Made by a program: the position numbers and the translations under genes
Shown here: piece after piece, positions 23,022 through 40,219 of the stretch
Position numbering within the stretch: the stretch's first letter is position 1
Layout of the letters: the number at the start of each line of letters is the position of its first letter
Assembly (NCBI RefSeq): GCF_001282685.1
Contig: NZ_LN875035.1
Location: forward strand, 724,250 to 788,249
Direction of reading: 5' to 3'
From: Niameybacter massiliensis
GTDB lineage: Bacteria; Bacillota; Clostridia; Lachnospirales; Cellulosilyticaceae
DNA: 64,000 nucleotides
Notes under the pieces: model-generated
The model's input: the letters and a program-made list of their open reading frames with translations, nothing else
The model's database searches: none
Told to the model about the DNA's origin: nothing

Positions 23022-23339
23022 TTATTTTGTATATTTACCTCCATAAGCACCATAGCCACCTTTTACATTAATCACGTTATAACCCACCTTTTTTAAAGCA
23101 GATGTGGCACGTGCACTTCTCATACCTGATTGGCACATTAAATAATAAGTTTGATCCTTTTTTAAATACTTATCTGGATGCTCTAATAAATTTCCCATTG
23201 GAATATTCGTAGCTGTTTGGATGGTTCCAAACCTCACCTCACCTGGTTCACGTATATCTATTAAATTAATTTTTCCAATTAAATCGTCTAATTCATTTAC
23301 AAAAATAGTATGATGATCTTTCTTTAAAAATGAAAACAT
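23022..23339 (-). CDS. single-domain rhodanese
   Basis: A 105-aa sulfurtransferase. The family pattern is clear: NLIDIREPGEVRFGTIQTA, IPMGNLLEHPDKY and the active-site loop LMCQSGMRSARAT carrying the persulfide cysteine. It transfers sulfane sulfur in the cytoplasm. It is the first gene of the transcript that includes the CoA-disulfide reductase, and the promoter carries a Crp-type box. AGAGGAGGAAAC precedes the ATG. Confidence 0.92.
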   Translation of the reverse strand: MFSFLKKDHHTIFVNELDDLIGKINLIDIREPGEVRFGTIQTATNIPMGNLLEHPDKYLKKDQTYYLMCQSGMRSARATSALKKVGYNVINVKGGYGAYGGKYTK

Positions 23340-23390: not shown

Positions 23391-23432
23391 ATTATAACGC
23401 CATTTATAAATGTTGTATGTGACACAGTCACT
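23391..23432 (-). promoter_or_regulatory. Crp-type box and -10 of the rhodanese operon
   Basis: The dyad TGTGACACAGTCACT (23418-23432, centre 23425) fits TGTRA-N5-TYACA. On the minus strand a perfect TATAAT begins at 23396, 29 nt from the dyad centre, putting the box at about -41. In the other direction a weak TAAAAA starts at 23454, also 29 nt away, so the same box may serve the regulator gene. Confidence 0.75.
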
Positions 23433-23509
23433 AAGTTCTATTGAAGGCTAGCATAAAAACTTTTTTCCTTTTATACTATATCTATAAAAAGAAGAAAGGT
23501 AGGCCTATT

Positions 23510-24193
23510 ATGATTTCTCAAGAAGATCAAAGTTTTTTAGTTCAACATTTAAGTTTTTGGGGGCATCTCACTCCTAGCCAACAAACTTTACTTTTTGAAC
23601 ACACCCATTTGGTTCATTTTTCAGCAGGGCAGACACTACATAGTGGTGATAAGGATTGTATCGGAATTATATTAATCAAAAACGGTTCTTTACGTACTTA
23701 TATGCTTTCCGAAAAAGGTAAAGATATTACACTCTATCGCCTTTTTGGAGGTGATTTATGTACCCTTTCTGCTTCATGTATTTTAAATCATATTACTTTC
23801 GATGTGCATATTGATGCAGAAGAAGATACAGAGGCCCTACTCATTCATACTTCTATTTTCTCTCAACTTATTAAAGAAAATATCTATGTTGAAAACTTTT
23901 CTAACAAAACCACTGTGGAACGTTTTTCAGATGTGATGTGGGCTATGGAACAAATGCTCTTTATGAGTTTTGATGAACGCTTAGCACTCTTTTTACTTGA
24001 TGAATCGGCAAAATGTGGATGTCCTACTTTAAAGTTTACCCATGAACAGATTGCTAAATATATTGGCAGTGCAAGAGAAGTTGTTTCTAGAATGTTAAAA
24101 TACTTTGAGCAAGAAGGACTTGTAAAACTCTCTCGTGGTGGCGTAACTATTACAGATAAAGCTGCTCTTAAACAACGCTTTTTCACACATTAA
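23510..24193 (+). CDS. Crp/Fnr family transcriptional regulator
   Basis: A 227-aa regulator with an N-terminal cyclic-nucleotide-binding-like sensor fold (about 15-125) and a C-terminal helix-turn-helix (176-200, EQIAKYIGSAREVVSRMLKY). The recognition helix has RExxSR, close to the RExxxR of Crp, which reads TGTGA half-sites. Cysteines at 50, 84, 90, 169 and 171, notably GDLCTLSASC, could sense sulfane sulfur or redox. I start at the ATG at 23510, preceded by GAAAGGTAGG. The 23 extra upstream codons have no site. It is divergent from the rhodanese operon. Confidence 0.9.
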   Translation: MISQEDQSFLVQHLSFWGHLTPSQQTLLFEHTHLVHFSAGQTLHSGDKDCIGIILIKNGSLRTYMLSEKGKDITLYRLFGGDLCTLSASCILNHITFDVHIDAEEDTEALLIHTSIFSQLIKENIYVENFSNKTTVERFSDVMWAMEQMLFMSFDERLALFLLDESAKCGCPTLKFTHEQIAKYIGSAREVVSRMLKYFEQEGLVKLSRGGVTITDKAALKQRFFTH

Positions 24194-24206
24194 TCTTACA
24201 ATAAGC

Positions 24207-24247
24207 AAAAGGAGTTTAGTAATCACTAAGATTACTAAACTCCTTTT
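24207..24247. terminator. bidirectional terminator between regulator and YeeE gene
   Basis: A perfect 18-bp stem (24207-24224 with 24230-24247) with a 5-nt loop, A's on the left and T's on the right. It serves both convergent genes. Confidence 0.88.
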
Positions 24248-24815
24248 AATTTTTATTTTTTGTAAAGGGATGAAGTGGAAGGCTTACTGCAATCAACATA
24301 AATAAGATGCCTATTCCAAGTAATCCACTATACCCTATGCTAAATACTGATGGGAATTGATCTGATATATTAAACCATGTAAGTTTACCTAAACTCATTG
24401 TATCAAATAATCCCATATTTTTGAGTGGCCCATAGCTTATTGAAAATACAAATGCACCTATGAGTCCCCCTAATACTGCCACAATCGCTTTTTTGAATCC
24501 GCCACTAGAGGTAGCTACTACACAAGTTCCTGGACATGTTCCTAGTCCACCAAAACCTATACCAAAAATGAGACCACCAATAACGACGCCTAAATGTGTA
24601 GATTTAATACTTAAATGAGAAGGATCAAAAATCCCCACTAAACTTGCAATAGAAAGAAGAACACTTGCAAATCCTATTGCAAAGAAAATAATTTTCATTA
24701 AGCTTAAGTCTTGAAAACGTAACATGCTTAAAAGTTTTTGTGGATTAGATGCACCAACATAATAAAGTACAGCGCCGAATAATCCTCCTAAAATAACTCC
24801 AAAAAAGATATTCAT
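24246..24815 (-). CDS. YeeE/YedE family half-permease, C-terminal-type subunit
   Basis: A 189-aa membrane protein of the YeeE/YedE (DUF395, sulf_transp) family, which imports thiosulfate or related sulfur compounds. About five hydrophobic segments are visible. The sulfur-relay cysteines lie in GLGTCPGTCVVATSSGG near residue 90-105. Full-length YeeE is about twice this size. Here the second half is a separate gene, with one base between the stop of the upstream half and this ATG. Confidence 0.88.
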   Translation of the reverse strand: MNIFFGVILGGLFGAVLYYVGASNPQKLLSMLRFQDLSLMKIIFFAIGFASVLLSIASLVGIFDPSHLSIKSTHLGVVIGGLIFGIGFGGLGTCPGTCVVATSSGGFKKAIVAVLGGLIGAFVFSISYGPLKNMGLFDTMSLGKLTWFNISDQFPSVFSIGYSGLLGIGILFMLIAVSLPLHPFTKNKN

Positions 24816-24816
24816 C

Positions 24817-25401
24817 TTATCGCCCTACCTTTCTTTTATTGTACGCATCCACAAGTAAAGCTGTTGGAATGGCTACAGCAAATACAGCACCAGCAAAAAT
24901 ATAACCACTTACACTACCTTGCATCATACCGCTCATCATATGTCCACTTGTACAACCATCTGCCATTCTAGCGCCAAATAAGATTAAAAAACCACCTATA
25001 AAACTTGGTAAATAGAGTCTTATAAAGCTTTGTTTTAAACTTGGAATATTTTGCTTTTCTCCTATGTTTGCCATATGCGAAGGTTGCTTCTTACGATTAA
25101 GAAGATAAGCCATATAAGCCCCTAATGGCATAGCTAATACAAAGACAAAATCATAATTCCAAGGATTTTTGATATGCCCTGCTAATTTTCCTTCACTCTT
25201 GTCATAGTAGGCATTACTACTTCTATAACCACTTTCACGAGTAGGGTCTGCTGTAATCACATTGGGCTCTATGGTACTATGTACCATACCACTTAATACA
25301 CTAAATTGTGTTGAAACACCTACTGGTTTCATAATAAAAATTGCTAAGAAAAAAACAAGTCCTAATAAAAGGGCATTTTTTAGCCAACTGGAATCCTTCA
25401 T
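24817..25401 (-). CDS. YeeE/YedE family half-permease, N-terminal-type subunit
   Basis: A 194-aa membrane protein of the same family with four to five hydrophobic segments. The conserved cysteine motif is ARMADGCTSGHMMSGMMQGS near residue 150. A large hydrophilic or extracytoplasmic region around residues 35-80 is unusual. It is probably a heterodimer partner of the gene downstream. It is the first gene of a two-gene operon whose promoter carries a Crp-type box. AAAGGAGTG precedes the ATG. Confidence 0.88.
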   Translation of the reverse strand: MKDSSWLKNALLLGLVFFLAIFIMKPVGVSTQFSVLSGMVHSTIEPNVITADPTRESGYRSSNAYYDKSEGKLAGHIKNPWNYDFVFVLAMPLGAYMAYLLNRKKQPSHMANIGEKQNIPSLKQSFIRLYLPSFIGGFLILFGARMADGCTSGHMMSGMMQGSVSGYIFAGAVFAVAIPTALLVDAYNKRKVGR

Positions 25402-25436
25402 TTAACATTCACTCCTTTAAATTTTATCCTAGCTTT

Positions 25437-25478
25437 ATTATGCCCTTATTTCATCATTCATTCTGTAACTACATCACA
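25437..25478 (-). promoter_or_regulatory. Crp-type box and -10 of the YeeE/YedE operon
   Basis: TGTAACTACATCACA (25464-25478, centre 25471) fits TGTRA-N5-TYACA. On the minus strand CATAAT begins at 25442, again 29 nt from the centre. No -35 hexamer is visible, as expected for class II activation. Confidence 0.75.
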
Positions 25479-25490
25479 ATTCCTATTTAT

Positions 25491-27965
25491 CTAAATAAAT
25501 AAATTCAGACCTGAATCTTCTGCTGCTCCTAAGTAGGATGCTACTCCACCAATTTCTACCCCCTCAATAAACTCTTCTTTTTTAATACCCATTAAGTCCA
25601 TACTCATGGCACAAGCAACTACTTTTACACCCATTTTAATAGCATTTTCAATTAATGTATCTAAGCTATCTACATTGTGTTTTTTCATAATCTGCTTGAT
25701 CATAGCTGGTCCCATACCTCCCATATTCATTTTAGAAAGGCCTAATTTATCTGTATGACTAGGCAACATCATATCAAACATTTTTTCCATTGTATCTTTT
25801 TGCACTTTAGGTCTATCTTTACTTTTTAAAATACTAAGTCCCCAGAAAGTAAAGAACATAGTCACTTCTTTTCCCATAGAAGCTGCACCTGTTGCAATAA
25901 TAAAAGAAGCTATGGCTTTATCCAAGTCTCCACTAAATACAACAAGTGTAGCACCATTTTTATCATTTGTTGCTACTGAACAAGATAGTGCCTGTGTTTT
26001 TTGTGCGCCTTTTTGAATCGTGGCTACAAAAGCTTTACGTTCCTTTACATACTCCGCTTTTAAAAGTGTATGATGGGTTTTTTCACACCACGCACCAATA
26101 TCTTTTGAAAAGCCCGGATCACTCGCACTTACTTCTAACAGTTCTCCTTCTTCCATGGTATTCATCTGCTCAAATACTTTACGGATAGGTCCTGGGCATT
26201 GTAAGCCACAAGCATTCAATTGATACTTTGCTTCCATAGTTACATTCTCCTTTACATGCTCAACTTGACTTGGTGGATTGTTTTTTTCTTTTATTTGTTG
26301 TGCGTTGTAATCTTTTTCTCCACGTTGCATATATAAATAGGTTTTAATACCGCCATCAATATTTTTACACTTAAATCCATATTGACTTAATAATCTACAC
26401 CCTACATAACCTCTTTGCCCAACTTGGCAAGTAACATAAATGATTCTATCTTTTGGAAGCTCTTCCATACGTTCACGAACTTGCCCCAGCGGCATATGAA
26501 TTGCATCTGGTACTTCACCCGTTGCAAGTTCAAATTCTTCTCTAACGTCTAAAATAACACCTCCATTTTTCACAGCTTCATCTATTTCATCCCATTGTAT
26601 AACTTCCACTAATCCATCTAAAATATTGCTCCCATAATACCCCATCATATTGACAGGGTCTTTAGCTGAATTATAAGGTGGTGCATAACATGGTTCTACA
26701 TCTTGTAAATCATAAACTGTAAATCCAGCTTTAATAGCTGTTGCTAGTACATCAATACGCTTTTCTACACCTTCCATCCCTACACCCTGAGCACCTAAAA
26801 CACGCCCCGTTTCTTTATCAAAGAGAAGTTTAAAAGCAATTGGGAAAGAACCTGGGTAGTAACCTGCATGAGAACCTGGATGAATGTGTAGTGCTTGATA
26901 ATTTTTCCCTAGACGTTTTAATGTTTTTTCGTTATTGCCTGTTGTAGCAACTGTGTAATCAAAAACTTTGGCTACTGATGAGCCCAGTGTTCCTTTATAA
27001 CGTTCCTTACGTCCACATAAGTTATTTGCAACAATATGTCCTTGTCTATTGGCTGGCCATGCTAATGGAATCATCACTTGTTCTCCACTTACAAAGTCAT
27101 TTACTGCAACTGCATCACCTAGTGCATAGATTGACTCATCTGATGTTTGCATATAGTCATTGACAAGGATTGACCCACGTGGTGTCACTTCAAGTCCAGC
27201 TTCTTTTGCAAGACTCGTTTCCGGTGTTACACCAATAGAAAGAATAATAAAATCTGTTTCTATTACTTCACCATTTTGTAAAATAATCTTATTTCCTTCA
27301 TCTTCAAATTCTTTTACACCGTTACTTAGAATAAGATGTACACCTTTATCTATTAAATGAGAGTGAATCATACTTACCATTTCAGGGTCTAATGGCGTCA
27401 TAACCTGATTACTTGCTTCAACAAGTGTTAACTCTACCCCTAACTCATGTAAGTTTTCTAACATTTCAAGCCCTATAAAGCCACCACCGATTACAGTAAC
27501 TCTTTTAGGTTTTTCTTTTTCAATATAGGCCTTAATGGCATCTGTATCTGGTATATTTCTTAATGTAAATAAATTTCTACAGGCCTCTATACCTGGAATC
27601 TTTGGAACAATAGGATGAGCACCTGGAGAAAGTACTAATTGGTCATAACTTTCTTCATAACTTTCACCTGATTGAAGATTTTTTGCAACGATCTTTTTAC
27701 CTACTCGGTCAATGCTGACCACTTCAGTTAATGCACGTATATCTAAATTAAATTTATGGCTCATTTCTTCTACACTTTGTAAAATAAGCTGACTACGTTC
27801 ACCAATAACATCACCGATATAATAAGGTAATCCACAGTTTGCAAAAGAAATATATTCACCTTTTTCAAATATAATGATTTCTATAGACTCATCTAATCTT
27901 CTAAGTCGAGCAGCAGTAGATGCACCACCTGCTACACCACCCACAATAATGACCTTTTTGCCCAT
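25491..27965 (-). CDS. four-domain CoA-disulfide reductase/rhodanese/TusA/DsrE fusion
   Basis: An 824-aa sulfur-handling fusion. Residues 1-445 are a FAD/NAD disulfide reductase (GGVAGGASTAARLRRL at 9-24, redox Cys44 in SFANCGLPYY, GGGFIGLEMLENL near 160). Residues 455-550 are a rhodanese with Cys near 513 in VTCQVGQRGY. Residues 575-645 are TusA-like with the CPGP motif near 590 (NACGLQCPGPIRK). Residues 665-824 are DsrE/F-like with a cysteine in VVACAMSMDLMG. It could pass sulfane sulfur from the reductase through three carriers. AGGAGTGAAAAT precedes the ATG. It is monocistronic with its own Crp-type promoter. Confidence 0.92.
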   Translation of the reverse strand: MGKKVIIVGGVAGGASTAARLRRLDESIEIIIFEKGEYISFANCGLPYYIGDVIGERSQLILQSVEEMSHKFNLDIRALTEVVSIDRVGKKIVAKNLQSGESYEESYDQLVLSPGAHPIVPKIPGIEACRNLFTLRNIPDTDAIKAYIEKEKPKRVTVIGGGFIGLEMLENLHELGVELTLVEASNQVMTPLDPEMVSMIHSHLIDKGVHLILSNGVKEFEDEGNKIILQNGEVIETDFIILSIGVTPETSLAKEAGLEVTPRGSILVNDYMQTSDESIYALGDAVAVNDFVSGEQVMIPLAWPANRQGHIVANNLCGRKERYKGTLGSSVAKVFDYTVATTGNNEKTLKRLGKNYQALHIHPGSHAGYYPGSFPIAFKLLFDKETGRVLGAQGVGMEGVEKRIDVLATAIKAGFTVYDLQDVEPCYAPPYNSAKDPVNMMGYYGSNILDGLVEVIQWDEIDEAVKNGGVILDVREEFELATGEVPDAIHMPLGQVRERMEELPKDRIIYVTCQVGQRGYVGCRLLSQYGFKCKNIDGGIKTYLYMQRGEKDYNAQQIKEKNNPPSQVEHVKENVTMEAKYQLNACGLQCPGPIRKVFEQMNTMEEGELLEVSASDPGFSKDIGAWCEKTHHTLLKAEYVKERKAFVATIQKGAQKTQALSCSVATNDKNGATLVVFSGDLDKAIASFIIATGAASMGKEVTMFFTFWGLSILKSKDRPKVQKDTMEKMFDMMLPSHTDKLGLSKMNMGGMGPAMIKQIMKKHNVDSLDTLIENAIKMGVKVVACAMSMDLMGIKKEEFIEGVEIGGVASYLGAAEDSGLNLFI

Positions 27966-28056
27966 ATTTTCACTCCTATTCTTTATTATAACGTTACTTA
28001 AACGCTTATATTTGTATTGCTATTTCTTCAACTTTTTAATTTAAATGTATAAATCT

Positions 28057-28098
28057 ATTTTAGCCATTTTTATTTTTATTTTCTGTGATTAAGTTACA
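28057..28098 (-). promoter_or_regulatory. Crp-type box and -10 of the 824-aa fusion gene
   Basis: TGTGATTAAGTTACA (28084-28098, centre 28091) fits TGTRA-N5-TYACA. On the minus strand TAAAAT begins at 28062, 29 nt from the centre, so the box sits at about -41. Confidence 0.75.
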
Positions 28099-28114
28099 TT
28101 CAACACGTTTTCTC

Positions 28115-28156
28115 TGTAACTTAATTACAGAATTTCATCCATTTATCATCTATACT
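28115..28156 (+). promoter_or_regulatory. Crp-type box and -10 of the DUF6132 gene
   Basis: TGTAACTTAATTACA (28115-28129, centre 28122) is a nearly perfect dyad. On the plus strand TATACT begins at 28151, 29 nt from the centre. The two boxes in this divergent region are 31 bp apart centre to centre (three helical turns) and their 17-bp surroundings form a near-perfect large inverted repeat. Confidence 0.78.
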
Positions 28157-28196: not shown

Positions 28197-28352
28197 ATGT
28201 TACAGACATTAACTTTCCCATTAATAGGCGGCCTACTTGGTTTGGGCTATTATAAACTTATTGGCTGCTCCTCAGGTAGCTGTCCTATTACTTCTAGCCC
28301 TTATGCCTCTATTCTTTATGGCATCTTTCTAGGCATACTTCTAGCTGCTTAA
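28197..28352 (+). CDS. 51-aa membrane mini-protein, DUF6132-like
   Basis: A 51-aa protein translated from the ATG at 28197, with AAAAGGAGC 7 bases upstream. It consists of a glycine-rich hydrophobic segment (PLIGGLLGLGYYKLIG), a cysteine motif GCSSGSCPITSSP and a second hydrophobic segment (ASILYGIFLGILLAA). The layout matches the DUF6132 family as I remember it. The two cysteines fit a sulfur-related role. It is divergent from the 824-aa fusion gene and has its own Crp-type box. A strong terminator follows directly. Confidence 0.82.
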   Translation: MLQTLTFPLIGGLLGLGYYKLIGCSSGSCPITSSPYASILYGIFLGILLAA

Positions 28353-28353
28353 T

Positions 28354-28396
28354 AACTAAAAGGCAAGACTCTATTTAAGAGTCTTGCCTTTTAGTT
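28354..28396. terminator. bidirectional terminator between DUF6132 and beta-helix genes
   Basis: A perfect 19-bp stem (28354-28372 with 28378-28396) with a 5-nt loop, flanked by A/T runs. It overlaps the stop of the lipoprotein gene at 28395. Confidence 0.9.
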
Positions 28397-30305
28397 AAAA
28401 TTGAACACGTTGGCCGTTTATATAAAGATTGAATCCATTACTTTTAATTTGATTTAAGTCACCATCTAATGCTGTAATATAAGAATCCCCTGTAAGTGTC
28501 CATGTACTTGTGCCATCTATACTTACTTTAACGTTACCTCCATTACCTGTTTCATTAATGGAACCTGTAAATGCGGAGCCTTCACTTAAAGTCATATCCA
28601 TTGTAGAAATCTCATCTACAATCATTTTTCCTTCTAATACTTGATGGGTTGCAATAACTGTTGCTTTACCACCATTGCTTCCTTTTGTTCCCCATCCTCT
28701 TGAACTTTCATTCCCTGCTATTTTAAGTAAAATGTCATTGGCAAGGTTAAGTTTCACATCAGATAATTCTATGGTACAAGTTGTATTGGTTACATAGAAT
28801 AAGTCACCTTGTTTGGCTGTAATACTTCCACCTTTTGCTGTAAAAGTAGAGTGACCCATTTCTGCATCTCCAGACATACTTTGATAGATCATAATATTTT
28901 GGATATTCTCATTAGCTTCTAAATGATTGCTGTCCATACTTCCTACTACATTACAATTTTCAAGTCTTACAGAGTTTTTACCTTCTATTACAATAGCCTC
29001 TGAGTGATTTGCAGTTAAAGTTGCATCTGCTACAGATATATCTGCTGTACTGTAGATTGCAGGGCTTCCAGTACCATTGGTTGTGTAAGTCCCACCTTTG
29101 ACATTTACAATACCGCCCCCACGGTCACTACGAATAGCCGCTGCTGACTCACCTTGGGTTTCAATATCTAAATGGGTTGCATGGGTTGTTCCACCACCTG
29201 TTGTTTGAATCCCACCTGAATTTCTGGCAGATGTACGAATAGTAGAATTTGAAATATTAACAGTGGTACCTTCTCCATAACTAAAGACACCATTACCATT
29301 TACAGTCTCAGTATTTACTGTTGCATTTTCAACGGTTACTTGTGCGCCATTGGTTGCAAGTAACGCAGCATTTTGGCCATAGAAGTCACCATTTTCTGTA
29401 TTGGAAGATTCGCCTTCTAATTTCTCAACTTGAATGTCTTGCAAGACAACATTTGCCCCATCTACACGTAAAGCGTTTTCATCGTCTCCTGTTGAAGCAT
29501 AGTGCTCATTACTTATACTTCCATCTGTATCAATAGTATGGGCTGATGTCCCCTGTGTAACCGTATGGCTGCCACCAAATCCACCACCCATTTGTAAGTT
29601 TTTTACTACAATACTTGTTGCTACATTGCCATCACCTAGGGCGATTTCTAGTACATCATTCACACCAATGTTATCCATTGTTCCTTCTTGTGTACCTTGT
29701 AACATCTCAATTGTAATCTTTGTCTGATCATCTACTGTAAAACTTATAGATTCACCCAGCTCATTAAATACTTTTCCACCCATAGCATTTTCACCTGGCA
29801 TGCCACCTTCTGGTTTTGCTGGTACGCCTGCTTCTCCTGCTTGCGCTTCACCATCTGGTAAGGCTGGTGGCGTTTCTCCCGTTGGTGCTTCTCCATTCGG
29901 TAACGCTGGTGGCGCTTCTCCCGTTGGTGTTTCTCCATCCGGTAACGCTGGTGGCGCTTCACTTGTTGGTGCTTCTCCATTCGGTAACGCTGGTGGCGCT
30001 TCACTTGCCTGTACTTCTCCATCTGGTAAGGCTGGTGGATTTTCATCTGTTGGTGTTTCTCCGTTTGGTAAGGCTGGTGGTCCTGAATTTTCGGTTAGTT
30101 CGCCTTGTATGGCTGTTATAATATTCCCCTCAATACTTTGAACTTTAACCGTTTGCACTTGTTCTCCCCCTTGCTCTTCTTTTATTTTTGTTGTATCTTC
30201 GATTACTTTATATTCTTGGGCCTTTGTTGTATTACATCCTGTCAGTAAACTCGTCGCTATTACTACAGCTAACATCGGTTTTACATTTCTAAAGTTCATA
30301 TTCAT
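28395..30305 (-). CDS. secreted beta-helix lipoprotein with tandem Pro-rich repeats
   Basis: A 636-aa surface protein. The lipobox LLTGC gives lipidated Cys24. Residues 76-159 are six 14-aa repeats (PPALPNGEAPTGEA type), a flexible acidic Pro-rich stalk. Residues 180-240 form a small beta domain. From about 255 to 600 the sequence has the Asn/Thr/Gly-rich ladder of a right-handed parallel beta-helix (GANVVLQDIQVEKLEGES, GNGVFSYGEGTTVNISNSTI, GGIVNVKGGTYTTNGTG), ending with STWTLTGDSYITAL. It may bind or cut polysaccharide, but no catalytic residues are evident. AAAAGGAGT precedes the start, and the second ATG (30299) is also possible. Confidence 0.85.
   Translation of the reverse strand: MNMNFRNVKPMLAVVIATSLLTGCNTTKAQEYKVIEDTTKIKEEQGGEQVQTVKVQSIEGNIITAIQGELTENSGPPALPNGETPTDENPPALPDGEVQASEAPPALPNGEAPTSEAPPALPDGETPTGEAPPALPNGEAPTGETPPALPDGEAQAGEAGVPAKPEGGMPGENAMGGKVFNELGESISFTVDDQTKITIEMLQGTQEGTMDNIGVNDVLEIALGDGNVATSIVVKNLQMGGGFGGSHTVTQGTSAHTIDTDGSISNEHYASTGDDENALRVDGANVVLQDIQVEKLEGESSNTENGDFYGQNAALLATNGAQVTVENATVNTETVNGNGVFSYGEGTTVNISNSTIRTSARNSGGIQTTGGGTTHATHLDIETQGESAAAIRSDRGGGIVNVKGGTYTTNGTGSPAIYSTADISVADATLTANHSEAIVIEGKNSVRLENCNVVGSMDSNHLEANENIQNIMIYQSMSGDAEMGHSTFTAKGGSITAKQGDLFYVTNTTCTIELSDVKLNLANDILLKIAGNESSRGWGTKGSNGGKATVIATHQVLEGKMIVDEISTMDMTLSEGSAFTGSINETGNGGNVKVSIDGTSTWTLTGDSYITALDGDLNQIKSNGFNLYINGQRVQF
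29829..30080 (-). repeat. six 42-bp tandem repeats inside the lipoprotein gene
   Basis: Six in-frame 42-bp units encode alternating PPALPNGE and PPALPDGE blocks. The units alternate Asn/Asp at position 6, and adjacent pairs are more alike, suggesting growth by 84-bp duplication. Copy number can change by recombination without breaking the frame. Confidence 0.9.
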
Positions 30306-30908: not shown

Positions 30909-31631
30909 TTAATTTATTTTATTTTTCTCTATTCTAACCATTCCATATCCAATGCCTATGCGGGTTTGAATATATTTTTCTTTTGTTTTGTCCTGTTCAA
31001 TTTTCTTTCTTAGGGTCGCCATATACACTCTAAGAGATGATAAATCACTTTCAATAGCGTTAATCCAAACTTTATCCAATATGTATTGATGGGTTAAAAC
31101 TTTCCCTACATTCTTAGCAAGTAAGCACAATAGGTTATACTCCATAGGCATCAGATGCACAACTTCTTCTCCAACCTTAACTGTTGCCGATGTATAATCA
31201 ATAGATAAATCACCATTTTCAAAAATGGTTTCAACTTGAGTCCCCTTATTTTCTAAATACTGCAACCTACGAAGTGTAGAACGTATACGTGCAAGTAGCT
31301 CTTCTACACTAAATGGTTTCGTTAAATAATCATCTGCGCCTGCATCTAAGGCTTCTATTTTATCTTTATCATCACTTCTTGCGCTAATGACAATAATGGG
31401 TGCCACCGACCAGGTGCGAATTTTCTTAATCACCTCTATACCATCCATATCAGGTAATCCTAAATCCATCAGAAAAATATCAGGTTGATGAGAAACCGCT
31501 ACTAACAGGGCCTCTTTTCCATCTGATGCAGTTTGATATTTATAATCTTGTGTATCTAGTGTTGTCATAATCAGATTACGAATAGGTGTATCATCTTCTA
31601 CAACAAGTATGTCTAGTTTACCATTAACCAT
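30909..31631 (-). CDS. kdpE: KDP operon response regulator KdpE
   Basis: A 240-aa OmpR/PhoB-family activator of potassium-limited growth. The receiver domain has the acidic pocket VVEDD (10-14), phospho-acceptor Asp56 in LMDLGLPD and Lys in DYLTKPFS. The C-terminal winged helix (about 130-235) includes MPMEYNLLCLLAKNVGKVLT and LRVYMATLRKKIEQD. Its start overlaps the kdpD stop by 8 bases. It probably binds the tandem 11-bp repeats found upstream of kdpA. Confidence 0.96.
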   Translation of the reverse strand: MVNGKLDILVVEDDTPIRNLIMTTLDTQDYKYQTASDGKEALLVAVSHQPDIFLMDLGLPDMDGIEVIKKIRTWSVAPIIVISARSDDKDKIEALDAGADDYLTKPFSVEELLARIRSTLRRLQYLENKGTQVETIFENGDLSIDYTSATVKVGEEVVHLMPMEYNLLCLLAKNVGKVLTHQYILDKVWINAIESDLSSLRVYMATLRKKIEQDKTKEKYIQTRIGIGYGMVRIEKNKIN

Positions 31632-34296
31632 CTATTTGTACCTCCTCTTGCTTCAATGTAAATCTAAAAATGGTTCCACTTGGTTTATTATCATGAACTG
31701 AAATTTGCCCACCATGGGCTTCTATAATAGACTTGCATAAGGCTAGCCCAAGTCCCATACCTCTTCTACCATCTGCCACTGCTTGCCCAGATGTATAGAA
31801 CATATCAAATAACTTAGCCTTTTCTTCATCTTTAATCCCTTTACCATTATCTATGACTTCAACGACAATCCACTCTCTTCGTTTCCTTGTACGAATTTGG
31901 ATGGTTGTACCAGGTGCTGTGTATTTAAGGGCATTATCAATTAAATTAATAAACACTTGCACAATAAGCTTTGTATCCATCTTGACCATAAATAAATCAT
32001 TTTCTTGATTCACAATAATCTTATGATCCGTTTTCTTTTTACTTAGATGTTGAAGTGCTTCTGCTATCACATCATCTAATAATTCTACTTGCAGATTAAG
32101 TGAGACTCTTCCATCTTCAATACGTGTAACAGAAAGAAGATTCTCTACTAAATTAATAAGCCACATCGCCTCTTCGTAAATATCTTCATAAAGTTCACTT
32201 TTATGTGCCTCATCTATTTTGTCTCCACTACTCATAAGTACCCCTGCATTTCCTGAAATACTGGTAAGTGGTGTACGTAAATCATGTGAGATGGATCTTA
32301 ATAAATTGGCTCTCAATTGTTCTTTTTGAAGTTGCATCGCTGCTTCTTTTCTTTCCTTTATAAGGGCTTCTTTTTCAAGTGCTAAAGCACATTCATTTAA
32401 AATAGCTCCCATCAGCCCTTCTTGAAAAGCATCCATTGCCTTGTCTTTCATATCTATCCCAACAACACCAAAGACTTGCTCTCCACTACGTACGGCTAAA
32501 TATAAATATTTAACACCTGGCAATGTACTTGTAGAAAATCCTGCATGCTTATTATTTTTGTAAACCCACTGGGCCACACCTAATTCTCTTTGATCGTAAG
32601 GAGATATTTCCTCTTCACCCCCCCACTTCCAAACAATAGGTTCTGGATGTATTTCAGGATTACCACTATAAAATAAAATATTTCTTTCTAAAAGTTCACT
32701 GAGCTGCTTTGCGGTATACGATACAATAGCCTCAACATCTACTGCTTGTTGAAACCTTTGACTTGTCTCAAGCAAAATTTCTGTTCGATAAGATTTCATG
32801 ACTGCCTGTTTGGCTTGCTGCTTAATCTTTTGCATTAACGTTGTACTGATAAAAGCCATAATAAACATAATCGCAAAAGTAGCCATATAACCTGGGTCAT
32901 ATACTGAAAATGTTCGAATCGGTTCAGTAAAGCAATAATTAAATACAAATACACTTAAAATACTTGCAATGGTACTACATAGCCTATGCCTTGTAAAAAG
33001 AGATGTAATCATGACGCCTAATAAATAGACCATAATCAAATTGGCTTCACTAAATCCCCAATAAGCAAATAAATAAGAAATACCTGTAGATAATCCTAGA
33101 ACAATCATTGAAATCAATATGTCTTGCATGATTAAATTCGTTTGATACTTGAAGCTTCTTTGACGTTTCTTAATATATTTTTTTTCGTAGCTATCAGGTA
33201 TGACAAAAATCTCAATTTGAGGTGCTAATTTTGTTAACCGTTCTGAGAAACTTTCTTTCACTCCAAAACGTGACCTTTTTGTATAGGTTCGCCCAAGTAC
33301 AACTTTTGTCACTTTTGCAGCCTTTGCATATTCTGCAATCTGCTCTACAATATCATTGCCATAAGAAGTGACAGTCTTGGCACCTAATTGCTCTGCAAGT
33401 CTTGAATGCCATCTTAACCGTTCTAAATCTTCATTTGAGAACTCAGTAAAGTCTGATGTCTCTACAAAAAAGGCTGTAAATTTACCATGAAAAGCACTTG
33501 CCATACGTGCAGCTTGACGAATAACTTTTTCATTGGAAGGTGAAGGTGATAGACAGATGAGTAAATGTTCCGCTGTACTTGATTTTTCTTGGATTAAGTT
33601 CACTCGGTCTGCCATTCTTCTTAAAGCTACTTCTCTTAATGCAATAAGATTTTCAACTGTAAAAAAGTTTTTTACAGCTTGGCTTGCTTGCTTTTCCTTG
33701 TAGATTTTACCTTGTTTAAGCCTTTCTAATAACTCCACAGGCTCTAAGTCTACTAACTCAACTTGGCTTGCACTATCAAATACAAAATCAGGTATGCGCT
33801 CCCTAACTACAATACCTGTAAGCCCTGCTACAATATCATTTAAGCTTTCTATATGTTGAACATTTACCGTGGTATATACATCTATTCCAGCCTTTAGAAG
33901 TTCCTCAATATCTTGATAACGTTTAAGATGCCTGCACCCCTCAGCATTGGTATGTGCCAGCTCATCTACTAAGAGTAGTTGGGGCTTTCTTTTAAGCGCA
34001 CCATCTAAGTCAAATTCTTTTAATAAGATATTTCTATATTCAATTTCAAGACAAGGTAATCTTTCAAGTCCTTCTAATTGAGCCATAGTTTCAGGTCTAG
34101 TATGAGGTTCAATATACCCTGCTACAACATCTATACCACTTTCTTTTGCTGCGTGAGCAGCTTCTAGCATCCCATAGGTTTTACCTACGCCTGCTGCATA
34201 GCCGAAGAATATTTTTAGCTTTCCACTATGTTTTTGCTTTTCCTCTTGTTCTAATTTTTTTAAGATTTCGTCTGGATTACGCATCCTTTCATTCAT
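31624..34296 (-). CDS. kdpD: osmosensitive K+ channel histidine kinase KdpD
   Basis: An 890-aa sensor kinase. The N-terminal KdpD domain has Walker A GYAAGVGKT (32-40) and Walker B LLLVDELAHTN. A universal-stress-like domain follows (LLICLSPSPSNEKVIRQAAR to about 370), then four membrane segments around 395-495 and a GAF domain. The HisKA segment LRSISHDLRTPLTSISGNAG contains the phosphorylated His, and the HATPase ends with N-, G1- and G2-box motifs (NLIDNALKYT, VIDNGKGI, GMGLGLAL). GAGGG precedes the ATG. It lies downstream of kdpC, separated by a hairpin and a tetranucleotide repeat. Confidence 0.97.
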   Translation of the reverse strand: MNERMRNPDEILKKLEQEEKQKHSGKLKIFFGYAAGVGKTYGMLEAAHAAKESGIDVVAGYIEPHTRPETMAQLEGLERLPCLEIEYRNILLKEFDLDGALKRKPQLLLVDELAHTNAEGCRHLKRYQDIEELLKAGIDVYTTVNVQHIESLNDIVAGLTGIVVRERIPDFVFDSASQVELVDLEPVELLERLKQGKIYKEKQASQAVKNFFTVENLIALREVALRRMADRVNLIQEKSSTAEHLLICLSPSPSNEKVIRQAARMASAFHGKFTAFFVETSDFTEFSNEDLERLRWHSRLAEQLGAKTVTSYGNDIVEQIAEYAKAAKVTKVVLGRTYTKRSRFGVKESFSERLTKLAPQIEIFVIPDSYEKKYIKKRQRSFKYQTNLIMQDILISMIVLGLSTGISYLFAYWGFSEANLIMVYLLGVMITSLFTRHRLCSTIASILSVFVFNYCFTEPIRTFSVYDPGYMATFAIMFIMAFISTTLMQKIKQQAKQAVMKSYRTEILLETSQRFQQAVDVEAIVSYTAKQLSELLERNILFYSGNPEIHPEPIVWKWGGEEEISPYDQRELGVAQWVYKNNKHAGFSTSTLPGVKYLYLAVRSGEQVFGVVGIDMKDKAMDAFQEGLMGAILNECALALEKEALIKERKEAAMQLQKEQLRANLLRSISHDLRTPLTSISGNAGVLMSSGDKIDEAHKSELYEDIYEEAMWLINLVENLLSVTRIEDGRVSLNLQVELLDDVIAEALQHLSKKKTDHKIIVNQENDLFMVKMDTKLIVQVFINLIDNALKYTAPGTTIQIRTRKRREWIVVEVIDNGKGIKDEEKAKLFDMFYTSGQAVADGRRGMGLGLALCKSIIEAHGGQISVHDNKPSGTIFRFTLKQEEVQIDG

Positions 34297-34320
34297 TGCA
34301 TTCCCTCTATTCCTAACATC

Positions 34321-34350
34321 ATCTATCTATCTATCTATCTATCTATCTAT
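34321..34350. repeat. (ATCT)7.5 tetranucleotide microsatellite upstream of kdpD
   Basis: Thirty bases of ATCT repeat lie 25 bp before the kdpD start codon, between kdpC and kdpD. On the coding strand it reads AGAT. Its length could vary by slipped-strand mispairing and change spacing between a promoter or upstream mRNA and the kdpD ribosome site. Confidence 0.85.
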
Positions 34351-34376
34351 TATTTATGTATGCTCTACTTTATCAT

Positions 34377-34422
34377 ATATAATGGAGGTATTATATTATT
34401 CCATATAATACCTCCATTATAT
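34377..34422 (-). terminator. 20-bp perfect hairpin after kdpC
   Basis: Arms 34377-34396 and 34403-34422 are perfect complements with a 6-nt loop. It follows the kdpC stop by 8 bases. No good U-run follows, so it may be a partial terminator or an mRNA-stabilising hairpin setting the ratio of kdpABC to kdpDE. Confidence 0.6.
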
Positions 34423-34430
34423 CAATTTTG

Positions 34431-35027
34431 TTATAAAACACCATCTAATATTAAATTTACTTTTAATACATTTACTGTAGGTTCACCAAATACACCTAAA
34501 AAGGCCTCTGTCGTTGCCTGAGTAATGGCATCTTCTACTACACTTTTTTCAATACCACGAACTTTAGCAATACGACTGACTTGATAGCTTGCTGCAGCTA
34601 TACTAATATGAGGATCTAATCCACTACCTGAACAAGTCACAAGATCAACTGGGATTTTATCTAAATCTCCAGCATATTGCTTAAGATAGGCTACTCGCTC
34701 TGAAACTAACTTTTCATAACTTTCACTTGCTGGACTTAAATTAGAAGGTGTAGCATACATCAGCTTATTTCCTTGTTCATCTTTAAAAGTAGAAGTATCA
34801 CTATTCATGATACGTCCCCACATATACTGCTCTCCTGTAAACTGTTGTCCCAGTAACTCACTCCCATACTTTTTACCATTTACTTCTATAATACTGCCAT
34901 TGGCCTTTTCTTTAAAAGCCACTTGGCTTATTCCCGTTACAACTAATGGGTACATACCACCACATAATACTGTAAAAATTATAAGTAGCCCTATAGCCTT
35001 TACAAGTAGACCTTTTAAACATTTCAT
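34431..35027 (-). CDS. kdpC: potassium-transporting ATPase subunit KdpC
   Basis: A 198-aa single-span subunit needed for assembly and ATP affinity of the KdpFABC pump. The N-terminal helix (LLVKAIGLLIIFTVLCGGMY) is followed by the family stretches GSELLGQQF, YMWGRIM, TPSNLSPASE, TCSGSGLDPHISIAAA and YQVSRIAKVRG. I start at the ATG at 35027 behind GGGAGG. The GTG at 35042 overlaps that site and is rejected. It follows kdpB by 32 bases. Confidence 0.95.
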   Translation of the reverse strand: MKCLKGLLVKAIGLLIIFTVLCGGMYPLVVTGISQVAFKEKANGSIIEVNGKKYGSELLGQQFTGEQYMWGRIMNSDTSTFKDEQGNKLMYATPSNLSPASESYEKLVSERVAYLKQYAGDLDKIPVDLVTCSGSGLDPHISIAAASYQVSRIAKVRGIEKSVVEDAITQATTEAFLGVFGEPTVNVLKVNLILDGVL

Positions 35028-35059
35028 TCTATTTCCTCCCACATTCTCTATTCCACACT

Positions 35060-37132
35060 TTAAGCTACAATGCCTAACGCTACAATGATGACATCAATCA
35101 ACTTTACAAAGATAAAAGGTGTAATCATACCCCCTACTCCGTAAATAAAAAGGTTACGGCAAAGTAATCTACCTGCTGATACCTCTCTATACTTAACACC
35201 TTTAAGCGCTAGTGGTATAAGTGCAATAATAACTAATGCATTATAAATAATAGCTGAAAAGATCGCACTCTCGGCACTATGCAATCCCATAATATTAAGT
35301 GCACTTAAACCTGGATAAATACTCATGAATAAAGCTGGAATAATAGCAAAATATTTGGCTAGGTCATTGGCAATACTAAAAGTCGTTAGACTACCTCGTG
35401 TCATTAAAAGTTGCTTACCTATTCGAACAATTTCAATCAGCTTTGTAGGTGATGAATCTAAATCTACCATATTACCTGCTTCTTTAGCTGCTTGTGTACC
35501 TGAATTCATGGCTACAGCAACATCTGCTTGTGCAAGAGCAGGTGCATCATTAGTTCCATCTCCTGTCATGGCAACTAAATGTCCTTTAGCCTGAAAGTTA
35601 CGAATCATCTCAAGTTTCCCTTCTGGTGTTGCCTCTGCTAAAAAGTCATCTACCCCTGCCTCTGCTGCAATAGCTGCTGCTGTTAAAGGATTATCTCCTG
35701 TAATCATAATGGTTTTAATCCCCATTTTGCGTAGATCTGCAAATTTCTCTTTAACGCCTTCTTTAATAATATCTTTTAAATAAATGACGCCTAATATTTC
35801 ATAATTTTTTGTAACAACGAGTGGTGTTCCACCTTGCTTAGCAATTTGCATAACCACTTCTTCACAGGCTTTACTATATAGTCCACCTTGTGCTTCTACA
35901 TACTGCTTAATAGAATCTGCAGCGCCTTTACGAATTTCTATATTTTTTAAATTGACGCCACTCATACGTGTTTTAGCTGAAAAAGGTACAAACTCAATTT
36001 TTAATTCACTTAGATTTCTTTCACGAATTCCAAATTGTTCTTTTGCTAAGACAACTACACTGCGCCCTTCTGGTGTTTCATCTGGTAAGGAAGAAAGTTG
36101 TGCCGCATCAGCTACCTCTTCTACCGTATGCCCATCTACAGGAATAAAAGCACTTGCCTGTCTATTACCTAATGTAATGGTTCCTGTTTTATCTAACATG
36201 AGAATATCTACATCTCCTGCAGCTTCTATGGCACGCCCACTCATTGCAAGTACATTAGCCTCATTAAGTCTACTCATCCCTGCAATCCCTATAGCTGAAA
36301 GGAGTGCACCGATAGTCGTTGGTGCAAGACAAACAAGTAAGGCAATAAGCGCTGTGATTGAAGTTGGGTTCTCTATGCCTACTTGTTTTGCTGCAAAATC
36401 TGAGTAGGTATAAAGAGAAGCTGTTACTGTAATAAAAATAATAGTTAAAGCCATTAAAAAGATCTGTAGCGCAATTTCATTTGGTGTCTTTTTCCTACTT
36501 GCGCCTTCTACCATAGCAATCATTTTATCTAAAAAGCTTTCTCCTGCCTCATTGGTAACACCTACAACAATCCAATCTGAAATAACTGTAGTACCACCTG
36601 TTACTGCACTGCGATCGCCACCCGCTTCACGAATAACAGGTGCTGACTCTCCTGTAATAGCACTTTCATCTACAGATGCAGCCCCTTCTAGCACCTCACC
36701 ATCGGCTGGAATTTGCTCACCTGCCTTTACTAATACTAAATCACCCTTTTTAAGATGAGCTGAAGAAATAACTGTTAAATGCTCTTTGTCTTCTATGGAA
36801 AGCATTTTATAAGCATCTACATCTTTTTTTGCCATACGTAATGCATCTGCTTGTGCTTTTCCACGCCCCTCAGCTATTGCTTCTGCAAAATTAGCAAATA
36901 ATACAGTAAACCAAAGTACAATGGCTATACCTAATATGAACCCTGTTGGTGCATCCTTAATTCCAAAGAGTGCCAATACAAAAAGACCTGAGGTTAAAAT
37001 GGCGGATACATAAACCAAGAACATAACTGGGTTGGCTAATTGTGTTTTGGGTGCTAACTTTATAAAAGAATCTTTAAGTGCACGGCTGATCATCTTAGAA
37101 TCCACCATACCCTTTTTAGAATTTGTCTTCAT
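35060..37132 (-). CDS. kdpB: potassium-transporting ATPase ATP-binding subunit KdpB
   Basis: A 690-aa P-type ATPase that hydrolyses ATP for high-affinity potassium uptake. It has the phosphorylation motif [11 protein letters not shown] (Asp near 315), the actuator motif [12 protein letters not shown], the KGAADSI segment and hinge [20 protein letters not shown]. The length is normal for KdpB. It lies 11 bases after kdpA. Confidence 0.98.
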
Positions 37133-37143
37133 TTTTGGTCCTC

Positions 37144-38892
37144 CTAACCTAACATTTGAAAGTACTCTGCAATAGGTCCAAGCGCAAGCGCTGGGAAGAA
37201 GCTTAATGCCCCTATTAAAAGTACGACAAAAACAAGTAATCCTACGAATAATCCATTACAGGTTGAAAGTGTTCCTGACGTTACTGCAATATGCTTTTTC
37301 TTTGCTAAACTTCCTGCTAAAGCTAGCATTGCAAACATAGGTACAAACCTTGCAAACAACATCATAATCCCTATGGATAAATTGATAAATGGCGTATTGG
37401 CATTAAAGCCTGCAAATGCCGAACCATTATTACCTCCTGCTGATGAATAAGCATATAAAAGTTCTGAAAAACCATGAGCACCTGCATTATTTAAACTTTG
37501 ATTAACAGATGGCACCATAGCAGCTATACCACTTCCTATTAAGATGACAATAGGTGTAGCAAGGCATGTAATGACAGCCATCTTCATTTCAAAAGGCTCT
37601 ATTTTCTTACCTAGATATTCTGGTGTACGTCCTACCATAAGACCTGCCATAAATACAGTAAGAATTACAAAAGCAAGCATACCATATAGCCCACATCCTA
37701 CACCTCCAAAAACGACTTCCCCAAGTTGCATCTGTAACATGGTCATCATGCCACCAAGTGGTGTGTAAGAATCATGCATAGAGTTAACGGATCCATTTGA
37801 AGCTGCAGTCGTATACGTTGCCCATATAGATGAACCTACAATTCCAAATCTTGATTCCTTACCTTCCATATTGCCACCAGCTTGTTGATAGGTAGATAAA
37901 TCTACTTCCCCTGCCTGTGCAAGCTGTGGTGTAGCCTGCTGTTCACTCACTCCAATAACGCCTAATGCCATGACAAGTAAAATCATCATTGCCATAAAAA
38001 TGGCCTTACCTTGTTTTTTATTCTTTACATTCCTACCAAAGGTAAAACATAAAGCAGCTGGAATAAGTAATATTGCAGTCACTTCTATAAGATTAGAAAG
38101 TCCTGTTGGGTTTTCAAATGGATGTGCAGAATTCACACCAAAGAATCCTCCTCCATTTGTCCCAAGCTGTTTAATTGCAATTTGACTTGCCGCTGGTCCC
38201 ATAGGTACCACTTGCTCTGTAACAGTTGCTCCCTCTTCATCTTTAATAGGTTCAACTAATTCAACTGTATCATAAGGTTTTAAGTTCTGCACAACACCTT
38301 GTGATACAAGAAATAAAGAGGTCACTATAGATAACGGAAGTAGCACATATAAGATAATCCTTGTTAAATCCACCCAAAAGCTTCCAAGTCCTTCACTTTT
38401 CACTTTTAAAAAGCCTCTTATCACTGCAAACAAAACAGCTATCCCTGTTGATGCAGAAACAAAATTTTGCACTGTTAAACCAAACATCTGAGTAAAATAC
38501 GTCAAACTTGATTCACCACTATAAGCTTGCCAATTGGTATTGGTGATAAAGCTTGCTGCATTGTTAAAAGCTAAATGCCAACTTGTTCCTCCTAATCCCT
38601 CTGGATTTAAAGGTAATAATCCTTGTATCATATGTAAAATAAATAATAAGATAAATCCTATACCATTAAATAAGGCGACACTAAGCGCATAATGCTTCCA
38701 TGTCATATCTTCCTTTTCATTAATACGCAAAAGTTTATAAATCATCTTTTCACATGGTATCAATAACTTAGATAAAAAAACATGTTCCCCATTCATAATC
38801 TTTCCTATATAAGCACCTAATGGTATGGCCAAAAGCACTAATACAACTAAGTAAAGCCCATATTTTAATATTGTAAACATTCTTTTATTCAC
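37144..38892 (-). CDS. kdpA: potassium-transporting ATPase channel subunit KdpA
   Basis: A 582-aa channel-like subunit with about ten membrane spans and four filter-like repeats (for example [53 protein letters not shown]). These set K+ selectivity. It starts the kdpABC run behind an AAAGGAGTG site. I find no separate kdpF in 38893-39008. Confidence 0.97.
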
Positions 38893-39849: not shown

Positions 39850-40219
39850 CATTTAAATAAATATAACAGGCATTACTACCCTCTTTTTCTATGACTTTAT
39901 CACAAAACCTTTTTAAAATATATTCTAAATTTTTAATATTTATTTCACATTTTAACTTGTTTATTCATTTTATATTCATAATTCCTCTGATTATTTTAAC
40001 TATCAAAGCTTTATATTCATCATTAAAATCTATATTAAATTTAATTTTTGTAACTTTACTAATAGCTTTTACTATACATTATACACAATTATAACTTCTG
40101 TTTTAAGTCATTTTTTACTCCATTTTGGTTGTTTTTGAACAAAGTTTAAATTTTTTTATATTTTTTGTCTTGAAACACTTTAATACTTCTTAACTTTATG
40201 ATATTATCTATACATATTA
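39850..40219. other. T-rich intergenic region without a convincing gene
   Basis: Very AT-rich. An open frame at 39891-40094 gives only a Phe/Ile/Leu-rich string typical of T-rich DNA and has no ribosome site. It holds the upstream promoter region of the solute-binding protein gene, for which I see no clear -35/-10 pair. Confidence 0.5.

What the first reader, a model, noticed from the sequence alone, without database searches (positions are those of the whole stretch)
23391..28156. Four promoters of the sulfur locus share one 15-bp box at an identical distance from their -10: a predicted Crp-type sulfane-sulfur regulon
The dyads TGTGACACAGTCACT (23418), TGTAACTACATCACA (25464), TGTGATTAAGTTACA (28084) and TGTAACTTAATTACA (28115) fit TGTRA-N5-TYACA. 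For all four, the first base of a -10-like hexamer (TATAAT at 23396 minus, CATAAT at 25442 minus, TAAAAT at 28062 minus, TATACT at 28151 plus) lies exactly 29 nt from the dyad centre. That places the box at about -41, the class II Crp position. The four promoters cover every sulfur transcription unit: rhodanese plus CoA-disulfide reductase, the YeeE/YedE pair, the four-domain fusion and the DUF6132 mini-protein. The regulator at 23510 lies in the locus, has a Crp-like RExxSR recognition helix and five cysteines. The inferred signal (sulfane sulfur or redox) is not shown by sequence. The half-site spacing of N5 differs from Crp (N6) and Fnr (N4).
Basis: partly seen in the sequence, partly recalled or inferred. 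Interest (0 to 1): 0.86.

Follow-up and report, generated by a model that had tools for sequence, protein, structure and literature searches.

The report
Cysteine-bearing Crp-type activator's thiol-redox regulon
A protein of the Crp/Fnr family, with three conserved cysteines where Crp would bind cAMP, is predicted to switch on the sulfur-handling genes of this bacterium through a 15-bp DNA box at one fixed distance from the promoter, and the same box, spacing and regulator recur in front of thioredoxin, rhodanese and ferredoxin genes in dozens of clostridia.

Summary
All four dyads and the 29-nt distance to a -10 hexamer are in the sequence; three dyads match TGTRA-N5-TYACA exactly, the one at 23418 with one mismatch. 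The rule passed tests on data never used to make it. Around 80 regulator orthologues from other species, N5 dyads number 46 against about 3 expected (N6 shows a modest 11; other spacings none). -10 hexamers pile up at exactly 29 nt from the box centre. Orthologues of the fusion (6/6) and of the CoA-disulfide reductase-rhodanese gene (7/7) keep box and spacing in regulator-positive genomes; two such genes in regulator-negative genomes lack it. Across 196 genomes the box-promoter follows the regulator (30/41 against 17/155, p=1e-14). So 23510 is very probably a class II activator of this regulon. The interpretation needs widening: across Clostridia the commonest targets are thioredoxin, NAD(P)H-disulfide reductases, small ferredoxins and rhodanese, so this is a thiol-redox/sulfur regulon. 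Three cysteines (C50, C84, C90) are invariant and lie in or near the former cAMP pocket; C169 and C171 are not conserved. The signal (persulfide, disulfide, heme or metal) remains untested.

The parts
23418..23432 (-). Box 1 (read on minus strand AGTGACTGTGTCACA), promoter of rhodanese - CoADR-rhodanese operon; one mismatch in the promoter-distal half-site
   Evidence: orthologous promoters L236 (G002) and L238 (G019) keep the box and a perfect TATAAT at 29 nt
23391..23396 (-). -10 TATAAT of the rhodanese operon, 29 nt from box centre
23022..23339 (-). single-domain rhodanese
   Evidence: Pfam PF00581
21281..22981 (-). CoA-disulfide reductase-like flavoprotein with C-terminal rhodanese
   Evidence: Pfam/NCBIfam
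23510..24193 (+). Crp/Fnr-family regulator; C50, C84, C90 conserved; recognition helix R189-E-V-V-S-R194; orthologue of PDB 3dv8
25464..25478 (-). Box 2 (TGTGATGTAGTTACA), promoter of the YeeE/YedE pair
25437..25442 (-). -10 CATAAT of the YeeE/YedE pair
24817..25401 (-). YeeE/YedE family half-protein (Sulf_transp)
   Evidence: PF04143
24246..24815 (-). YeeE/YedE family half-protein (Sulf_transp)
   Evidence: PF04143
28084..28098 (-). Box 3 (TGTAACTTAATCACA), promoter of the four-domain fusion
   Evidence: conserved in 6 of 6 fusion orthologues
28057..28062 (-). -10 TAAAAT of the fusion
25491..27965 (-). CoADR - rhodanese - TusA - DsrE2 fusion, 824 aa
   Evidence: Pfam
28115..28129 (+). Box 4 (TGTAACTTAATTACA), promoter of the DUF6132 mini-protein; 31 bp from box 3, back to back
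28151..28156 (+). -10 TATACT of the DUF6132 gene
28197..28352 (+). DUF6132 mini-protein, 51 aa
   Evidence: PF19628; a DUF6132-like protein follows trxB behind a box in L152

Best explanation
The 23510 protein is a Crp/Fnr-family class II activator. Its dimer binds the 15-bp dyad TGTRAY-N3-RTYACA(GAA) centred at -41. The promoter-proximal half-site then sits where Crp's does at class II promoters (TCACA at -38 to -34), and the distal half-site is one base pair closer, which gives N5 instead of N6. From there it recruits RNA polymerase to promoters in which the box occupies the place of a -35 element. In this genome it switches on the four sulfur transcription units of the locus, and probably a ferredoxin operon elsewhere. 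Across Clostridia the same regulator and box control thioredoxin, NAD(P)H:disulfide/polysulfide reductases, rhodanese and small ferredoxins. The most likely signal is a change of thiol state of C50/C84/C90, which occupy or border the region that is the cAMP phosphate-binding cassette in Crp: persulfide or polysulfide first, ordinary disulfide second. Supported by computation: box, spacing, -10, start-site A, conservation, regulator-box co-occurrence, regulon content, cysteine conservation. Inferred: DNA binding by this protein, activation rather than repression, and the signal.
For: Spacing test in 80 independent loci: N5 46 (about 3 expected), N2-4 and N7-9 at background, N6 11. -10 profile from promoters selected on the box only: TANNNT at offset 29 in 38 of 65 against 0-7 at other offsets. 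G-33 80%, A-32 89% and A at +1 83%, none of them used for selection; all four window promoters have A at +1 and three have GAA after the box. Orthologous promoters: 6/6 fusion and 7/7 CoADR-rhodanese in regulator+ genomes have box (at most 2 mismatches) plus -10 (at least 4/6) at 29 nt; 0/2 in regulator- genomes. Co-occurrence 30/41 against 17/155, Fisher p 1.2e-14. Targets: thioredoxin 17, Pyr_redox_2 13, Fer4 12, rhodanese 8 of 65. C50 86/86, C84 85/86, C90 86/86, RE invariant. R180/E181 of Crp correlate with G3/A6 of the half-site (PMC1274295), as found here.
Against: No binding or expression data. 41 of 80 regulator loci have no exact box within the fetched flank, and 11 of 41 regulator+ genomes lack the strict composite pattern. 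The loose dyad alone is not enriched in this genome. The regulator's own promoter is not clearly of this type (TAAAAA at offset 29 in its direction). The thioredoxin genes of this genome carry no box. The co-occurrence test does not correct for shared ancestry of genomes. Nothing in the sequence tells persulfide from disulfide, heme or metal.
Confidence: 0.8

Rival explanations
1. Same regulator and boxes, but the signal is oxygen or general disulfide stress rather than sulfane sulfur: C84 and C90 (with C50) form a disulfide when thioredoxin becomes oxidised, and the regulon restores thiols and removes oxidants.
For: Thioredoxin, thioredoxin reductase, CcdA, a glutaredoxin-like protein and ferredoxins are targets in relatives; one candidate site lies between a flavodiiron-type protein (FprA) and PFOR in this genome. 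In C. difficile trxA1B1 and trxA2 are induced by 1% O2, for which the authors suggest a common uncharacterised regulator (PMC10880999).
Against: In this genome the clearest targets are sulfur-transfer proteins (TusA, DsrE2, rhodanese, YeeE/YedE). No box was found at its thioredoxin genes, and the C. difficile targets found are a ferredoxin operon and a C_GCAxxG protein, not trx.
Confidence: 0.35
2. The regulator is a heme (CO/NO/redox) or metal sensor; the cysteines ligate heme, a metal or an iron-sulfur cluster, and the sulfur genes are one output.
For: CooA, which binds heme through a cysteine in the same cassette, is among the closest solved relatives, and the alignment puts its cysteine-containing stretch against C84-C90. 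PgRsp of Porphyromonas gingivalis, modelled on the orthologue 3DV8, binds heme (PMC6955866).
Against: No histidine at the CooA ligand position (serine here). PgRsp DNA binding did not respond to heme, and single substitutions of Cys76, Met78 or His85 did not change its heme spectra (PMC6955866). The targets are mainly thiol-redox and persulfide enzymes.
Confidence: 0.15
3. The boxes are bound by another Crp/Fnr paralogue (for instance an HcpR-type protein); 23510 is only a neighbour.
For: The genome holds five weaker Crp/Fnr matches; HcpR sites in Clostridia are similar palindromes (PMC1274295).
Against: The box follows presence of this regulator at E<=1e-20 across 196 genomes and clusters around its gene in 39 of 80 loci from other species. 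The published HcpR2 consensus has one more base between half-sites (GTAAC-N4-GTTAC).
Confidence: 0.08
4. Chance: AT-rich promoters with a loose palindrome.
For: The loose dyad alone equals its control genome-wide (34 against 33).
Against: Independent data confirm dyad, spacing, -10 offset and start-site base.
Confidence: 0.01

Closest known systems
Crp (cAMP receptor protein) at class II promoters
   Same: Fold, RE--R recognition helix, TGTGA half-sites, site centred near -41, proximal half-site in the same register
   Different: Half-sites one base closer (N5, not N6); the cassette that binds cAMP phosphate is replaced by CxLSASC; regulon of thiol and sulfur enzymes
PDB 3dv8 (EUBREC_1222, Eubacterium rectale)
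   Same: Clear orthologue by sequence and fold (E 1.9e-63; TM 0.87-0.91); shares C50, C84, C90 and the RE helix
   Different: Deposited as a putative regulator; no function for it was found in the papers held
HcpR / HcpR2 (Crp/Fnr family)
   Same: Anaerobe regulators with Crp-like palindromes (wTGTGA-N6-TCACAw; GTAAC-N4-GTTAC; PMC1274295)
   Different: One more base between half-sites; regulates hybrid cluster protein (NO stress), which was not seen among the targets read here
PgRsp (Porphyromonas gingivalis)
   Same: Crp/Fnr protein modelled on 3DV8, tied to oxidative stress and bcp (PMC6955866)
   Different: Binds heme; direct targets shown there are hmu, bcp and its own gene; the passages read give no box like this one
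Persulfide-responsive repressors (CstR, SqrR/BigR/YgaV, SoxR/sHdrR)
   Same: Control sulfur-transfer and sulfur-oxidation genes through cysteines (established knowledge; PMC9774250, PMC10451225, PMC12423496 listed)
   Different: CsoR- or ArsR-family repressors; here a Crp-family protein in an activator position

Membership tests
Crp/Fnr superfamily | cNMP-binding-like sensor domain plus Crp-type winged helix | tested here: met
   PF00027, PF13545 and PF00325 over cut-off; model matches 3dv8, Crp, CooA, FNR
Crp/Fnr superfamily | Recognition-helix residues that correlate with TG.GA half-sites (R180, E181) | tested here: met
   R189-E190 invariant in 86 orthologues; box TGTRA; correlation from PMC1274295
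cAMP-Crp | Intact cAMP phosphate-binding cassette (GE...ERSA) | tested here: not met
   Aligned stretch reads GGDLCTLSASCILNHITF
cAMP-Crp | TGTGA-N6-TCACA site | tested here: not met
   N5 46, N6 11 near regulator orthologues
FNR | N-terminal cysteine cluster for [4Fe-4S] | tested here: not met
   First cysteine is C50
FNR | TTGAT-N4-ATCAA site | tested here: not met
   Boxes at these promoters are TGTRA-N5-TYACA
HcpR | wTGTGA-N6-TCACAw or GTAAC-N4-GTTAC site, hcp in the regulon | tested here: not met
   Spacing N5; no hybrid cluster protein seen among the 65 targets (only the 25 commonest Pfam families were listed)
CooA-type heme sensor | Cys and His heme ligands in the cassette | tested here: not met
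   The His position is Ser in the alignment to 1ft9; heme binding itself not tested
Persulfide-sensing regulators (functional class) | Paired reactive cysteines that change DNA binding on persulfidation | not testable with these tools
   Three conserved cysteines exist; reactivity unknown
Class II activator promoter | Site centred at about -41.5, overlapping the place of a -35 element | tested here: met
   Offset 29 to -10, A at +1, box occupying -48 to -34; start sites not mapped by experiment

The most novel reading that the evidence does not exclude
A separate, widespread Crp-family lineage of anaerobes in which the cyclic-nucleotide pocket has become a three-cysteine thiol or persulfide sensor, an activator rather than a repressor, read out through N5-spaced class II promoters that couple sulfane-sulfur handling to thioredoxin and ferredoxin supply.
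Probability: 0.45. Interest if true: 0.78.

Novelty: new variant of a known kind. Interest (0 to 1): 0.64.

Why it matters
Regulators of this type occur in Clostridioides difficile, Faecalibacterium, Acetobacterium, Anaerocolumna and many Lachnospiraceae, and a structure (3dv8) has been public since 2008 with no function found in the papers held. Those papers name no regulon with this box and none joins Crp/Fnr with sulfane sulfur. The result gives the regulator a predicted site, promoter geometry and target list across clostridia, so binding, signal and physiology can be tested directly. It also offers an activator counterpart to the known repressor-type persulfide sensors.

Tried and rejected
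Loose dyad as genome-wide evidence: rejected, equal to control. CsoR/CstR-type alternative regulator: two CsoR-like genes exist elsewhere in the genome, one beside a metal-ATPase-like gene and one beside a transporter-like gene, neither near these genes and neither with a box. Box at thioredoxin genes of this genome: none. Box at PFOR in G002 near its regulator: none. Box at 39890 in the window: one mismatch, -10 only 4/6, not pursued. The first run of the orthologue-promoter test used unoriented loci and was discarded, redone with orientation. Literature for this N5 consensus: no hit. PADLOC scan of the regulator: no match. Distances between the three cysteines could not be measured because model coordinates are not exposed.
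Full report
What is in the sequence. Three dyads match TGTRA-N5-TYACA exactly; the one at 23418 ends in T instead of A. The loose dyad alone means little: the whole genome holds 34, and the same pattern read backwards 33. With the -10 at 29 nt added, the 9.2-kb locus has five hits (four promoters, one inside the rhodanese gene), while 289 of 300 shuffles have none and 11 have one.

Proteins. Pfam and NCBIfam confirm the rhodanese, the CoADR-rhodanese, the YeeE/YedE pair, the CoADR-rhodanese-TusA-DsrE2 fusion, the DUF6132 mini-protein and the Crp/Fnr regulator. The regulator's nearest solved relative is 3dv8 of Eubacterium rectale (E 1.9e-63; same fold, TM 0.87-0.91).

Out-of-sample test of the box. 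Orthologues of the regulator were fetched from other species: 80 loci, 1.04 Mb. Nothing in these loci had been used to define the box. N5 dyads occur 46 times against 2-4 in shuffles; the strict form TGTGA-N5-TCACA 34 times against 0-2. Spacings N2-N4 and N7-N9 are at background; N6 shows a modest excess (11 against 3-5), which may be sites of other Crp-type regulators. 39 of the 80 loci carry at least one exact N5 box.

Out-of-sample test of the geometry. For 65 promoters chosen only by box and a downstream gene, TANNNT hexamers appear at offset 29 in 38 cases and at every other offset from 12 to 59 in 0-7. In 65 promoters with a -10 at that place, three further positions that played no part in the selection are strongly biased: G at -33 (80%), A at -32 (89%) and A at +1 (83%). 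The +1 bias sits 41 nt from the box centre, which is independent support for class II. All four window promoters have A at that position, and three have GAA after the box. An odd-length 15-bp box centred at -41 puts its proximal TCACA at -38 to -34, exactly where a 16-bp Crp site centred at -41.5 would put it; only the distal half-site moves (arithmetic on established class II positions).

Footprinting of true orthologues. In the same family, all six orthologues of the fusion (51-100% identity, the window's own included) have a box with at most two mismatches and a -10 of at least 4/6 at exactly 29 nt. So do all seven CoADR-rhodanese genes in regulator-positive genomes, again counting the window's own. 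The two CoADR-rhodanese genes in regulator-negative genomes have none (one of them lies at a contig end and is broken), and the more distant CoADR paralogues have none in either kind of genome. The distance to the start codon varies widely, from 73 to 491 nt (one search was a first, unoriented run and is discarded).

Who binds. In one sample of 196 genomes of the order, the strict composite pattern is found in 30 of 41 genomes with the regulator (E<=1e-20) and 17 of 155 without; the latter rate is close to that of the reversed control (Fisher p 1.2e-14). The recognition helix REVVSR is nearly invariant, and its R and E match the G3/A6 correlation described for this family (PMC1274295). Genomes share ancestry, so the p-value overstates independence.

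What is controlled. The first genes behind 65 predicted promoters include thioredoxin (17), pyridine nucleotide-disulfide reductases (13), small 2[4Fe-4S] ferredoxins (12) and rhodanese (8) (a protein can count in more than one family). CcdA, a glutaredoxin-like protein and C_GCAxxG redox proteins also appear. In this genome two more candidates are a ferredoxin plus Fer4_5 membrane protein operon (C11:1701479, no mismatch) and the intergenic region between FprA and pyruvate:ferredoxin oxidoreductase (C6:6606, one mismatch, perfect TATAAT). In C. difficile the boxes precede the ferredoxin operon next to the regulator and a C_GCAxxG gene. The regulon is therefore wider than sulfane sulfur.

Signal. 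Three cysteines, C50, C84 and C90, are conserved in 86/86, 85/86 and 86/86 orthologues; C169 and C171 are not. C84 and C90 lie in the stretch aligned to Crp's cAMP phosphate-binding cassette, and the cassette itself is lost. The FNR cysteine cluster is absent, as is a histidine at CooA's heme ligand position. A thiol-state signal is the simplest reading. Within it, persulfide fits the sulfur targets of this genome and disulfide fits the thioredoxin targets of relatives; sequence cannot decide. A heme reading stays possible because PgRsp, a relative modelled on 3DV8, binds heme (PMC6955866).

Novelty. The held literature has no paper with this N5 consensus and none that joins 'Crp Fnr' with 'sulfane sulfur'. 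Subscription papers and curated regulon databases were not searchable, so an earlier description elsewhere cannot be excluded.

Noticed in passing
L209:6628-7416 (this genome C11, near 1700628-1701416); L068:9089-9893: A recurrent two-gene unit, 2[4Fe-4S] ferredoxin plus a Fer4_5 membrane protein (KKxWYDYLWI...), sits behind the box in this genome and in C. difficile next to the regulator; function unknown.
   Followed up: partly
this genome C6:6606-6647 (L141, L210): One-mismatch box with perfect TATAAT at 29 nt between a flavodiiron-type FprA gene and pyruvate:ferredoxin oxidoreductase, reading towards the latter.
   Followed up: partly
L152:2521 onward, L056:6473 onward: DUF6132-like mini-proteins with a GCxxGxC motif also occur in loci of other clostridia; in L152 one follows thioredoxin reductase behind a box.
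   Followed up: partly
window 24206-24248: A 19-bp hairpin terminator-like element between the convergent 3' ends of the regulator and the YeeE/YedE pair.
   Followed up: no
window 28395-30305: Lipoprotein-like ORF with tandem PPALP(N/D)GE repeats followed by a long region.
   Followed up: no
window 30909-38892: ORFs that read as a Kdp potassium-transport locus (KdpE-like 30909, KdpD-like 31624, KdpA-like 37144), by sequence reading only.
   Followed up: no
80 loci: A modest excess of N6 dyads (11 against 3-5 expected) near the regulator orthologues, possibly sites of another Crp-type regulator.
   Followed up: no
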